IMG/VR virus record: IMGVR_UViG_3300042922_000277
Coordinates: 1-21,712 of that record
Source of the DNA: a virus
DNA: 21,712 nucleotides
Strand: one strand, 5' to 3'
The number at the start of each line of letters is the position of its first letter. The stretch's first letter is position 1. The notes under the pieces were generated by a model that had not been told where the DNA came from, did not search any database, and saw only the letters and a list, made by a program, of their open reading frames with translations. Position numbers and translations under genes: made by a program. This document shows positions 11,582-17,479 of this stretch, in pieces.

Positions 11582-12853
11582 TTAACCAGCTAATCTTCTT
11601 GGTTTGATTATTGTTTTTACCATATATCTTAGTGCATCATCGCCATGGTCATTTACTTTTAAAGGTTTTTCTTCACCACGTTCAGCTGCTTTTTCATCCC
11701 ATACATATGAAGCTATATCCTTTAAAGTTCTTGGGCATTTATCTTTTACAATTTTTATTTTTCTTTGTGCCATCATCGTAGAGGTCATTCTAATACCATC
11801 TGATACCTCGTTATCTGCATCTTTTATTCTGTAACCTCGGCTCCTCATTTCTACTTTAAAGCTTGCTGCAGATGGATCTAGTATTACTGCTATTGGGTAA
11901 TCTTCTCCAATAAATTTTATTAAATCATCTGCATATTGTTTATCTGTCTTCTGTGAACCTTTTTCTTTACTGTCATAATAATATTCATTTACTACCCATA
12001 AAGTATCTCCATCATCCCATATATCTAAAAAAACCATAGGGTTAGTTGTACCATAATCTATGGAAATATATCTTTGAGCAGTATATTTATATCCTAATGG
12101 CAGTTCAGATTCAGTTATTTCATTTTCTTCTGACCACATATCAAATATTGCACCTTGAGCCATTACCCAAAGTCCTTGAATAAATCTTTTGAAGAATACT
12201 CCTACATACCATCTTCTATATTGTTCTTTTTTCTTTTCAGATAAACTTAAGTTATCATCCATTACAAAATGAAGATATAATAAATGTTTCTCTTTAGCCT
12301 TATCAATCCAGTTTACTTTAAACCAGTGCATAGGCCCATCTGGATTGCAGTTAAACCAAAACTTTGAGCCTTCTACTGAACAACGTCCAGTACCCTGGTT
12401 AACAAAGCTTTCAGGCATCAGTGCAACTTCGTCAAAGAATATACCTGCTAGGGTAATACCTTGTATAAGATCTTGTGAGCTTTCGTCTTTCCCGCCAAAA
12501 ATATAAAAATAATTTATTTTACCATTTTTAGCTATCTCGATGTAATTTTCGGTTTTATGATCTTTATATCTATAACCTCTGCTTAAAAGCATAAGTCTAA
12601 GCCAAAACCATACATTACGTCTAAAGCTTCCAACGGTTTTACCACACATACCAAGATTTTGACTATCGAAAGTTTCCATTGCCCATATTACGAAACTTAA
12701 TGCCATGGATACTGTTTTGCCTGACCTTATGGCACCATCAGCAATAATTCCATCAGCATCTTTTACGGGACTATTTTCAGTCCACCAATTAAGTACTTTT
12801 CTTTGCTTTTTAGAGAATGGTTTAAATTTAAAGACTGCTTTAATCTTCTTCAT
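11582..12853 (-). CDS. terL: Terminase large subunit (PBSX / Terminase_3 type)
   Basis: A 423-aa packaging motor. The ATPase domain has Walker A GAIRSGKT (residues 40-47), Walker B GIFFDE (137-142, Asp141 and Glu142) and a coupling motif FWFNCNPDG around 166-173. The RNase H-like nuclease domain has acidic residues Asp266 (SIDYG), Asp326 (VILDPS) and the HGDDALRY motif (Asp405/406). The length is typical and all key residues are present, so it looks functional. It starts at ATG 12853 behind CAGGAGGATT and overlaps the small subunit gene by 14 nt. A 190-nt gap with hairpins follows. Confidence 0.93.
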   Translation of the reverse strand: MKKIKAVFKFKPFSKKQRKVLNWWTENSPVKDADGIIADGAIRSGKTVSMALSFVIWAMETFDSQNLGMCGKTVGSFRRNVWFWLRLMLLSRGYRYKDHKTENYIEIAKNGKINYFYIFGGKDESSQDLIQGITLAGIFFDEVALMPESFVNQGTGRCSVEGSKFWFNCNPDGPMHWFKVNWIDKAKEKHLLYLHFVMDDNLSLSEKKKEQYRRWYVGVFFKRFIQGLWVMAQGAIFDMWSEENEITESELPLGYKYTAQRYISIDYGTTNPMVFLDIWDDGDTLWVVNEYYYDSKEKGSQKTDKQYADDLIKFIGEDYPIAVILDPSAASFKVEMRSRGYRIKDADNEVSDGIRMTSTMMAQRKIKIVKDKCPRTLKDIASYVWDEKAAERGEEKPLKVNDHGDDALRYMVKTIIKPRRLAG

Positions 12854-13775
12854 CTGACCAATCCTCCTGAGCTGTTCCTTTTAATGCATCAATAAATCCA
12901 TCATCTTCTACTTCTTCCTCTGGGTCTTCTCCTGATTTCAATGCTGCTAGTTCAACTTTCTTTCTTTCAAGTTCAAGCCTTGCATTGTCATACTCGATTT
13001 TATGCTTATCCAAAGGATTCATTTCAAAGAAATTTGTTAACCATTCTAAGGCTTTCATCCTATCCTCAAGCTTAATGCTAACACCTTGCTTACCAGCTTT
13101 AATTTCTGTGATTATTTCTCCATCTACTTCAAAACTTTCTTTAAGCCTTACTGAACTCACCATATGAGTTAATATTTCATCCTTACCAGTTGCAGGATTT
13201 TTCATCATTACCGGAACTCCTGCTGATGTCATAGGTAATCTTTCTTGTCCAAATTCTACATAATCATTCATATCTGAAAAGGCAATTCTCATATATTTAT
13301 CAACTATATCTTCTTTATCCAGCATTATAGACTCCCTTTTAAGTTTTTTAAGGTAATTTATATATGCTTTTACCTTATCATTTCTCATCAACCTAGAGCC
13401 TTCCATAAATGCGCAATTTAATGAATAGCCAGCTTTTATAGCAGCCTTATATGCAATAGGTACTCTTACAAATTCTTCAGCGAATAATCTTTGTCTTTCA
13501 GTGAGTTCATCAATTTCTAATGATGTATTATTTTCTTCATTTATAACTTTACTAGCTTCTACTTTTTTATTAATATTTTTATTAGTTGCGCAACTTTTCT
13601 TTTTTGATTGCGCAATTTTATTTTTATTATCCCAATCGTCCTTTGCTTTCCAATTTCTTACTTGGCTTTCAGATACACCAAGTTTTTTAGCAATATCTTT
13701 GCAAAGCATTGTTTTATTGGAATCTAAATACATTTTTTTAGCTTTATCTCTGTTTGGGCTTCTTACTCTACCCAC
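12840..13775 (-). CDS. terS: Terminase small subunit
   Basis: A 311-aa DNA-recognition subunit. The N-terminus (residues 1-50, RSPNRDKAKKMYLDSNKTM then CKDIAKKLGVSESQVRNWK) is a helix-turn-helix of the phBC6A51/PBSX type. After a Lys/Asn-rich linker (about 51-90), the Terminase_2-like region starts with LTERQRLFAEEFVR and AYKAAIKAGYS, and the C-terminal tail is acidic (DPEEEVEDDGF), which probably contacts TerL. The start is a GTG at 13775 with AGGTGAG upstream. It is larger than most small subunits (about 150-250 aa) because of the fused HTH and tail. It is the first gene of the late operon. Confidence 0.88.
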   Translation of the reverse strand: MGRVRSPNRDKAKKMYLDSNKTMLCKDIAKKLGVSESQVRNWKAKDDWDNKNKIAQSKKKSCATNKNINKKVEASKVINEENNTSLEIDELTERQRLFAEEFVRVPIAYKAAIKAGYSLNCAFMEGSRLMRNDKVKAYINYLKKLKRESIMLDKEDIVDKYMRIAFSDMNDYVEFGQERLPMTSAGVPVMMKNPATGKDEILTHMVSSVRLKESFEVDGEIITEIKAGKQGVSIKLEDRMKALEWLTNFFEMNPLDKHKIEYDNARLELERKKVELAALKSGEDPEEEVEDDGFIDALKGTAQEDWSDEED

Positions 13776-15381: not shown

Positions 15382-15414
15382 TTTCAATCCTCCTAAAAAT
15401 CTCCTATTTCTAAA

Positions 15415-15509
15415 TAGTGGGTAAGGATTTGCACCTTACATGGTTCACCTGCCTCTACTATCTCCTCCGTGATGGATAGTCCCAGCGTCTACCTATTCCG
15501 CCACCACTA
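15415..15509 (-). ncRNA. tRNA-like RNA element with a 12-nt GGAGGA loop in place of the anticodon loop
   Basis: The minus strand has a Leu/Ser-tRNA-like D-arm (TGGCGGAATAGGTAGACGC, 3-bp stem, GG in loop, 15503-15485), a T-arm (GTAAGG/CCTTAC, 15439-15421, 7-nt loop TGCAAAT with G where T55 is expected) and acceptor strands TAGTGG/CCACTA (15509-15504 with 15420-15415). Between D- and T-arm no normal 5-bp/7-nt anticodon arm can be drawn. Instead ACTATC/GATAGT (15480-15475 with 15462-15457) closes the loop CATCACGGAGGA, followed by a 17-nt variable region. No CCA is encoded. It may be a decayed tRNA-Leu or a dedicated tRNA-mimicking RNA. It is certainly structured; its function is unknown. Confidence 0.65.
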
Positions 15510-15516
15510 ATTTTTC

Positions 15517-15548
15517 ATAAAACAAAAGCACCCTATTTCTAGAGTGCT
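15517..15548 (-). terminator. Strong hairpin terminator directly upstream of the tRNA-like element
   Basis: On the minus strand AGCACTCTA pairs with TAGGGTGCT (9 bp, one T-G) closing a GAAA tetraloop, followed by TTTTGTTTTATG. It is the best-formed terminator in the window. It would end the 232-aa gene transcript, yet the tRNA-like element begins only about 8 nt later, leaving no room for a promoter between them. Confidence 0.8.
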
Positions 15549-15651
15549 AAACTAAGGGGAATTAACTTGATTTGCTGTTACCAGGTTTGTATGGCCCTGC
15601 TAACAACCGAAAATCTTATATTACTATTTTCTCATATTTTTTATATGTCAG

Positions 15652-16580: not shown

Positions 16581-17009
16581 TTATTCTTCCCCAAAAATAA
16601 CTATGGCCATTTTCTTTAATGCATCTTTTTTCTTTCGTCTGGCAGTTCTTTCCCCTAAACTGAGCTTATAGCAAAACTGATAATAAAATTTATTCTCTAT
16701 ACATCTATATTTTATAATCATTCTTTCTATTTCCGTTAAGCTCCCCATGGCTTTATTAACAGCATTTACAACGTTAGCCATAGACTTAATTCTCTTTTGT
16801 ATATTCAACTTTTCCATTCTTATTGCCTTATTTTCAGTATCACTGTTATATTTATTTGTTGGGCTTATCTTATCTCTGCTATAATCTATTCCCATGCCTT
16901 CATCTGCTATGTCCTCAATTAACTCTTTTAAATTCTCTATGCTATATTTATAAGCTTCATAATCTTTAAGCCATTCAATTATTTGCTGTTCTTTTTCATA
17001 CTGATTCAT
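16581..17009 (-). CDS. ArpU / sigma-region-4-like late transcription regulator
   Basis: A 142-aa protein. N-terminal two thirds are helical (IEWLKDYEAYKYSIENLKEL, KLNIQKRIKSMANVVNAVNK). The C-terminus LTEIERMIIKYRCIENKFYY then LSLGERTARRKKKDALKKMA is a sigma-70 region-4-like helix-turn-helix, as in ArpU/RinA-type phage activators of late genes. I chose ATG 17009 because an AGGAGG lies 6 nt upstream; the ATG at 17024 overlaps the previous stop (ATGA), but the AGGAGG would then be codons 2-3. It is the last gene of the early operon, as expected for the switch to late transcription. Confidence 0.8.
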   Translation of the reverse strand: MNQYEKEQQIIEWLKDYEAYKYSIENLKELIEDIADEGMGIDYSRDKISPTNKYNSDTENKAIRMEKLNIQKRIKSMANVVNAVNKAMGSLTEIERMIIKYRCIENKFYYQFCYKLSLGERTARRKKKDALKKMAIVIFGEE

Positions 17010-17020
17010 AGACTTCCTCC

Positions 17021-17479
17021 TCATTTTACTATTTTCCCTCTTACCTTGTTAATTCCTAGTTTCTTTAGGTATTTTTCACTTGCATTAGGTATATACATAT
17101 CTACTTTTATAGTGTTACTGTTAATTCTTTTTATTGCTCCACCGGTATCCTGATTCTCAAATACTCCCATGCCCTCTAAATATAACTTAGTTCCGAATTC
17201 ATACTCTTTAGGCATTGCTATATGTCCCCTGCTTAATTTTAAATTATTAGCTCCTATTCCATCTGTTTTTCCGCAGTCAGCAACTGTATTTGAATAGTAG
17301 GATACTATAACATTTATCGAGTTTTCATCCTCAGAAAAGGATGTAGTTATATATTCTTCTCGCTTTATTTCTGATACGCTAATTTCTTTGCCTCTTGCTA
17401 CTGCTGTCATAGGTCTAGCTGGTTTACAAGCTGTTATATAAGCTGCAAAACCAACTGTTCCAACTAAGCCAAATGACAT
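17021..17479 (-). CDS. 3D-domain protein, possible lipoprotein (152 aa)
   Basis: The C-terminal half is a 3D domain (double-psi beta-barrel related to RlpA/MltA): TDGIGANNLKLSRGHIAMP, EFGTKLYLEGMGVFENQDTG and IKVDMYIP carry the three characteristic Asp residues (73, 111, 127). Such domains occur in cell-wall-active proteins. The N-terminus is a hydrophobic stretch ending ITAC at position 18, a plausible lipobox, although the usual basic n-region is missing. The ATG at 17479 is fixed by AGGAG and an in-frame TAA just upstream. It lies in the early operon, not with lysis genes, so its role may be envelope modification at infection rather than host lysis. Confidence 0.8.
   Translation of the reverse strand: MSFGLVGTVGFAAYITACKPARPMTAVARGKEISVSEIKREEYITTSFSEDENSINVIVSYYSNTVADCGKTDGIGANNLKLSRGHIAMPKEYEFGTKLYLEGMGVFENQDTGGAIKRINSNTIKVDMYIPNASEKYLKKLGINKVRGKIVK

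What the first reader, a model, noticed from the sequence alone, without database searches (positions are those of the whole stretch)
15415..15509. tRNA-like RNA with a GGAGGA-bearing 12-nt loop instead of an anticodon loop
Seen: acceptor-like strands, a Leu/Ser-type D-arm with GG, and a T-arm with a near-canonical loop (TGCAAAT) are all in the correct order over 95 nt. The central arm is ACTATC/GATAGT with loop CATCACGGAGGA, and the normal anticodon stem cannot be formed. Inference: this could be a degenerate tRNA, but the perfect 6-bp central stem and 6-bp T-stem argue for selection on another fold. A GGAGGA loop complementary to the 16S 3' end suggests a ribosome-binding or translation-modulating tRNA mimic. 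A structural role in packaging or RNA processing is also possible.
Basis: partly seen in the sequence, partly recalled or inferred. Interest (0 to 1): 0.72.

Follow-up and report, generated by a model that had tools for sequence, protein, structure and literature searches.

The report
Anticodon-less tRNA-like phage RNA family
This is one copy of a large, so far unannotated family of viral RNAs that copy the outer shell of a leucine transfer RNA but replace the part that reads the genetic code with a fast-changing, swappable RNA domain, which suggests a role outside translation, perhaps in the contest between phages and bacteria.

Summary
The tRNA-like element is real (window 15414-15510, minus strand) but is not a lone decayed tRNA. 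I parsed 354 relatives (341 different centres) from phages, plasmids and prophages of Bacillota. All have a 7-bp acceptor stem, a tRNA-Leu-type D arm and a 6-bp T stem with loop UGCAAAU. None has an anticodon arm. The acceptor, D and T stems covary strongly (233 double-changed cells against 63 in shuffles; 98% paired against 31-48% when slid). In place of the anticodon arm sits a hypervariable centre (median 70 nt), which forms an H-type pseudoknot about 20 times more often than shuffled sequence at the stricter cut-off. Centres behave as cassettes: phages with near-identical flanks carry unrelated centres, and identical centres sit in unrelated frames. Elements lie between the late-transcription activator and the terminase genes (as in this window), or in tRNA arrays. 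The GGAGGA loop is private to this copy and SD-like motifs are not enriched, so the 16S-binding idea is not supported. No Rfam 15 family covers the element, ARAGORN and phage annotations miss it, and no paper found describes it. Most likely, not shown: a processed trans-acting tRNA mimic whose centre gives specificity against a fast-evolving host target.

The parts
15414..15510 (-). whole tRNA-like element, 97 nt; discriminator position T at 15413
15504..15510 (-). acceptor 5' strand TTAGTGG
   Evidence: covarying helix in 50 relatives; here 6 of 7 pairs
15485..15503 (-). D arm TGGCGGAATAGGTAGACGC, tRNA-Leu type (A14, A15, G18, G19)
   Evidence: shared with 354 elements and with genuine tRNA-Leu
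15475..15480 (-). P1 5' strand ACTATC of the central domain
   Evidence: inverted repeat I21
15469..15472 (-). PA 5' strand TCAC, proposed pseudoknot pairing with 15445-15448
   Evidence: P about 0.01, inferred by family analogy
15463..15468 (-). GGAGGA, residual loop; position of the variable insert in relatives; not conserved
15457..15462 (-). P1 3' strand GATAGT
15445..15448 (-). PA 3' strand GTGA
15440..15441 (-). A47-T48; T48 would make the Levitt pair with A15 as in tRNA-Leu
   Evidence: T48 in 354 of 354 elements, including 39 found by the D-arm scan, which did not ask for it
15421..15439 (-). T arm GTAAGG-TGCAAAT-CCTTAC, 6-bp stem
15414..15420 (-). acceptor 3' strand CCACTAT
15527..15548 (-). 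intrinsic-terminator-like hairpin just upstream of the element (AGCACTCTAGAAATAGGGTGCT + T-rich tail)
16581..17024 (-). late transcription activator-like gene (phrog_36/248/2198)
   Evidence: the same families lie next upstream of the element in other phages
12840..13775 (-). terminase small subunit, downstream
   Evidence: phrog_2606 E 9e-84
11582..12853 (-). terminase large subunit, downstream
   Evidence: phrog_2 E 6.5e-46

Best explanation
What it is: one member of a family of tRNA-like RNAs of phages of Bacillota. A frame derived from tRNA-Leu (7-bp acceptor, D arm, 6-bp T arm, D-loop/T-loop elbow) is kept, and the anticodon arm is replaced by an exchangeable, hypervariable domain that is often an H-type pseudoknot. 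Confidence in this part: about 0.93 (shown by sequence comparison). How it works (inferred): the RNA is transcribed with the late genes or with a tRNA array. Host RNase P and RNase Z trim it like a tRNA, and it persists as a stable trans-acting RNA. The acceptor and elbow dock on host proteins that bind tRNA, while the swappable centre supplies specificity toward a fast-evolving target, most plausibly a tRNA-acting or translation-acting host defence, or a rival phage or satellite. Confidence in this mechanism: about 0.35-0.4.
For: Frame: 12 of 16 pairs have changes on both sides; 233 double-changed cells against 63.1 +/- 6.8 in shuffles; 98% of cells paired against 30.6-48.1% when slid. With no acceptor filter, 73 of 99 T-arm/D-arm pairs have 7 of 7 acceptor pairs, against 2.7% when partners are re-dealt. 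Two discrete classes: a D-arm scan blind to the T loop gave tRNA-Leu genes (TTC loop, 5-bp T stem, found by ARAGORN) and this class (mostly TGCAAAT, 6-bp T stem, not found by ARAGORN). The D-arm motif occurs only in tRNA-Leu among 505 predicted tRNAs. Centre: pseudoknot score of 24 or more in 25% of centres against 1.3% of shuffles, 30 or more in 10% against 0. Cassette exchange: of 43 pairs with both flanks at least 80% identical, 18 have centre identity of 0.60 or less and 22 have 0.9 or more; 49 pairs share a centre in unrelated flanks, some with different acceptor stems. The 21 loci with several copies never carry the same centre twice. Trans action: elements lie in intergenic gaps, in late operons and in tRNA arrays, and the surroundings are not constant.
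Against: No expression, processing or binding data. No target was identified. The centre could vary because it is tolerated rather than because it is selected. Not every centre scores as a pseudoknot. Repeated co-location with the late activator and terminase genes would also fit a cis role. The first scans required the T-arm sequence, so its invariance is partly ascertained; the D-arm scan relaxes this only in part and shows variants.
Confidence: 0.4

Rival explanations
1. Cis-acting leader or punctuation element: the tRNA-like fold in the late transcript is cut by RNase P and RNase Z to set the 5' end and stability of the terminase/head mRNA; the centre is mostly spacer.
For: Often placed between the late activator gene and HNH/TerS/TerL; co-directional with neighbours; in Listeria phages it sits directly behind the rliG-like late-leader hairpin.
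Against: Also in tRNA arrays (tRNA within 1 kb for 94 of 312 elements; EFDG1) and inside the SPP1 head operon. Pseudoknots in the centre and bimodal centre exchange are not expected of a spacer.
Confidence: 0.2
2. An aminoacylated tRNA-like RNA: LeuRS and SerRS need little or nothing from the anticodon, so the RNA is charged and used outside decoding.
For: Leu-type D arm, A15-T48, discriminator A in 155 of 249 fully paired elements against 33% A background.
Against: The discriminator is not A in 38%; CCA is encoded in 1 of 312; the first acceptor pair is free.
Confidence: 0.1
3. The centre is an antisense or guide region against phage or host transcripts.
For: Hypervariability on a constant scaffold.
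Against: Longest complementary stretch to the own contig equals that to other contigs (9.28 against 9.23 nt). Host and rival genomes were not tested.
Confidence: 0.06
4. A packaging RNA placed at the terminase/cos end of the genome.
For: Near cos and terminase in the Leuconostoc phages, phiJL-1, phiFL2A and this window.
Against: In tRNA arrays and elsewhere in other phages; A118, A500 and A006 lack it at the equivalent site.
Confidence: 0.05
5. One reading: GGAGGA presented in a loop binds the anti-Shine-Dalgarno end of 16S rRNA.
For: GGAGGA is present in this copy.
Against: Not conserved and not enriched in relatives.
Confidence: 0.03
6. A degenerate tRNA-Leu gene.
For: D arm identical to that of real tRNA-Leu genes.
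Against: Compensatory changes in the parsed family, none with an anticodon arm.
Confidence: 0.01

Closest known systems
tRNA-Leu
   Same: D arm sequence, A14/A15, G18G19, T48 before the T stem, 7-bp acceptor; one real phage tRNA-Leu even has the T arm GTAGG-TGCAAAT-CCTAC
   Different: no anticodon arm; T stem 6 bp, not 5; T loop UGCAAAU rather than UUCRANU; centre of median 70 nt
tmRNA (ssrA)
   Same: tRNA-like frame without anticodon, plus pseudoknot(s)
   Different: much shorter (median about 120 nt); has a D stem; no Rfam tmRNA match to the element; no tag ORF sought or found; in EFDG1 a separate tmRNA lies beside the element
Listeria sRNA rliG (RF02415, prophage A118)
   Same: late-leader RNA at the same site; in some Listeria phages the element follows the rliG-like hairpin directly
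   Different: A118, A500 and A006 have the leader without the element; the Rfam model does not cover it
T4 species 1 RNA (rnaC)
   Same: stable phage RNA in a tRNA cluster; T-arm-like 3' part CCGGGTTCGAATCCCGG
   Different: no shared sequence motif seen; kinship untested
Bacillus cereus pseudo-tRNA tRNA-Other (PMC3399842)
   Same: tRNA-like RNA with a role outside translation
   Different: has a Trp anticodon and lies in a chromosomal island
GOLLD / ROOL RNAs
   Same: structured RNAs that occur in phages, some near tRNAs (own knowledge; PMC12286853 covers their structures)
   Different: much larger; no Rfam match here

Membership tests
canonical tRNA (RF00005) | 5-bp anticodon stem with 7-nt loop | tested here: not met
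   ARAGORN none at default, forced 4-nt anticodon at 70%; 1 of 312 relatives overlaps an ARAGORN call, at its edge only
canonical tRNA (RF00005) | Rfam tRNA model at gathering score | tested here: not met
tRNA-Leu ancestry | Leu-type D arm and A15-T48 | tested here: met
tmRNA | Rfam tmRNA model | tested here: not met
   (the tmRNA hit in EFDG1 is a separate gene next to the element)
tmRNA | mRNA-like domain with tag ORF | not tested
   no scan for tag ORFs was made across the family
rliG (RF02415) | covered by the Rfam covariance model | tested here: not met
   the match ends where the element's acceptor begins
this tRNA-like family | acceptor, D and T helices with covariation | tested here: met
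   the window copy has 6 of 7 acceptor pairs and a full T stem
this tRNA-like family | pseudoknotted centre | tested here: inconclusive
   holds for a good part of the family; window P about 0.01 with a 4-bp second helix set back 3 nt
this tRNA-like family | expressed as a discrete processed RNA | not testable with these tools
   no RNA data

The most novel reading that the evidence does not exclude
A widespread class of phage RNAs in which a tRNA-Leu shell carries a swappable hypervariable domain that neutralises, or marks, fast-evolving host or rival systems acting on tRNA or translation: an RNA counterpart of anti-defence protein cassettes.
Probability: 0.33. Interest if true: 0.88.

Novelty: categorically new. 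Interest (0 to 1): 0.78.

Why it matters
A structured RNA present in well-studied phages (SPP1, SPbeta, several Listeria and Leuconostoc phages) and in hundreds of metagenomic phages appears to have been missed because tRNA finders reject it and Rfam has no model. Its constant shell and exchangeable core point to a conflict-driven function that can be tested in a laboratory phage. It also provides a natural scaffold in which RNA domains are presented inside a tRNA fold.

Tried and rejected
Degenerate tRNA (rejected: family covariation). SD/16S mimic (no conservation or enrichment). Antisense to the own phage (no excess complementarity). tRNA with an intron (ARAGORN -i gave nothing on the element at default threshold). 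Known Rfam RNA. Core bacterial RNA (rejected: with a strict T-arm pattern only 5 of about 790 Bacillota genome searches match, and 3 of those 5 are the genomes used as centres, as expected of prophages). A match in a Methanobrevibacter MAG is likely contamination, since it is the only archaeal match. Ten paper searches in the open PMC library gave no description; subscription journals and preprints were not searchable. I did not build a covariance model, because the centre is too variable for one; pattern scans plus a parser were used instead. Searches failed for technical reasons and were repeated.

Full report
Anatomy in the window. The element reads on the minus strand from 15510 to 15414, in the direction of all phage genes around it. 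Order: acceptor TTAGTGG; T8 G9; D arm GCGGAATAGGTAGACGC; TGGG; ACTATC; CA; TCAC; GGAGGA; GATAGT; AGAGGCAG; GTGA; ACC; AT; T stem GTAAGG, loop TGCAAAT, CCTTAC; acceptor CCACTAT. ARAGORN at default and Rfam 15 find nothing; a forced ARAGORN call has a 4-base anticodon.

Relatives. blastn against phages showed that two blocks, the D arm and the T arm, recur at variable spacing in unrelated phages of Leuconostoc, Listeria, Enterococcus, Lactobacillus, Weissella and Paenibacillus, in almost all of which nothing is annotated there. In genomes the exact T arm occurs in 38 stretches, nearly all Bacillota; among plasmids only in Bacillota. A parser yielded 354 elements with 341 different centres.

The frame is an RNA structure. 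On 50 diverse frames the 7-bp acceptor, 3-bp D stem and 6-bp T stem pair in 98% of cells; 12 of 16 pairs change on both sides; there are 233 double-changed cells against 63 in shuffles and 29-44 in slid controls. The parser asks for at least 5 acceptor pairs, so I repeated the acceptor test without that filter: 73 of 99 have 7 of 7 pairs against 2.7% for re-dealt partners. The 13 bp of acceptor plus T stem (7+6) exceed the 12 of ordinary tRNA (7+5).

Kinship to tRNA-Leu. The D-arm motif occurs in tRNA-Leu and in no other isotype among 505 predicted tRNAs. A contig with this element also holds a true tRNA-Leu with the identical D arm (L039). Nucleotide 48 is T in 354 of 354, including 39 elements found without asking for it, which allows the A15-U48 pair of tRNA-Leu (own knowledge). 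A D-arm scan blind to the T loop splits mainly into ordinary tRNA-Leu and this class; a few intermediates (TTC loop, replaced anticodon arm) also exist.

The centre. It has median length 70 nt. A common plan is: 3-5 nt, helix P1, 1-3 nt, helix PA, variable insert, P1', a loop, PA', then AT and the T stem. Requiring both helices in this crossing order, a score of 24 or more is reached by 25% of centres against 1.3% of shuffles. Some related centres show compensatory changes, for example L074 GAGTG/CACTC against L107 GCGTG/CACGC. The window copy fits with a weaker PA (TCAC/GTGA) set back by 3 nt (P about 0.01). Ten of the first 312 centres contain an extra tRNA T-arm motif, where about 0.05 was expected.

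Cassette behaviour. With both 45-nt flanks at least 80% identical, centres are mostly either unrelated (18 pairs) or nearly identical (22 pairs) out of 43. In 49 pairs the same centre lies in unrelated flanks, e.g. L034 and L037, identical over 46 nt with acceptors TGACAGG and GATTTGG. Listeria phages LmcIH1-8, LM 4-14-1, PSA, LP-101 and B025 share the acceptor but carry several different centres; A118, A500 and A006 have the same late leader without any element. I infer homologous exchange at the conserved arms.

Context. The nearest upstream gene matches the late activator family phrog_36 in 13 of 61 sampled loci; downstream genes include HNH nucleases, terminase subunits and scaffold. The window shows the same order. 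About 30% of elements have a tRNA gene within 1 kb; in EFDG1 the element lies in a tRNA array beside a phage tmRNA.

Mechanism. Shown: a conserved tRNA-like frame, no anticodon arm, exchangeable centre, late-operon or tRNA-array location. Inferred from general knowledge: RNase P/RNase Z maturation, use of host tRNA-binding proteins, specificity by the centre. The exchange pattern resembles that of specificity modules in phage-host conflict; no target is known. The GGAGGA idea fails because neither the motif nor its class is conserved.

Novelty. tRNA-like RNAs are a known kind, but I know of none with a constant tRNA-Leu shell and a swappable core, and no family, annotation or paper found here describes it. 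The literature check covers open PMC papers only, so a description elsewhere cannot be excluded.

Noticed in passing
L125 (SPP1 X89721) about 2130-2180: A second, about 45-nt mini tRNA-like hairpin (ACGGAC...GCGGGTTCAATTCCCGG...GTCCGT + T run), right behind the SPP1 element.
   Followed up: no
L131 (Enterococcus phage EFDG1) 2476-2826: A phage-encoded tmRNA (RF00023, 140.6 bits) directly upstream of the element in a tRNA array; not annotated in the record.
   Followed up: no
L436, L451, L460, L469, L484, L500: Apparent subclass in which the T arm reads GGGTGAC... with what looks like an insertion inside the T loop.
   Followed up: no
L446, L462, L499: Variants with ordinary TTC T loop and 5-bp T stem but still a replaced anticodon arm.
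   Followed up: no
L051, L076, L162, L180, L181, L220, L229, L271, L291, L348: Centres that contain an additional T-arm motif GGTTCRANTCC, far above chance.
   Followed up: partly
L408-L413, L005, L129: Listeria sRNA rliG lies in the late leader of A118-type phages; the tRNA-like element is an optional module behind its conserved hairpin.
   Followed up: partly
window 15574-15605: An imperfect hairpin (TGTTAC-CAGG...CCTG-CTAACA) upstream of the terminator-like hairpin at 15527-15548; together they look like a small RNA with terminator (sroB-like only below threshold).
   Followed up: no
L407 (T4) 409-547: T4 species 1 RNA (rnaC) has a T-arm-like 3' part, so it may be another anticodon-less tRNA-like phage RNA.
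   Followed up: no
L130 (FelixO1) 1501-1522: An isolated T-arm-like remnant GTAAGGTGCAAGTCCTTA lies between tRNA genes in Felixounavirus.
   Followed up: no
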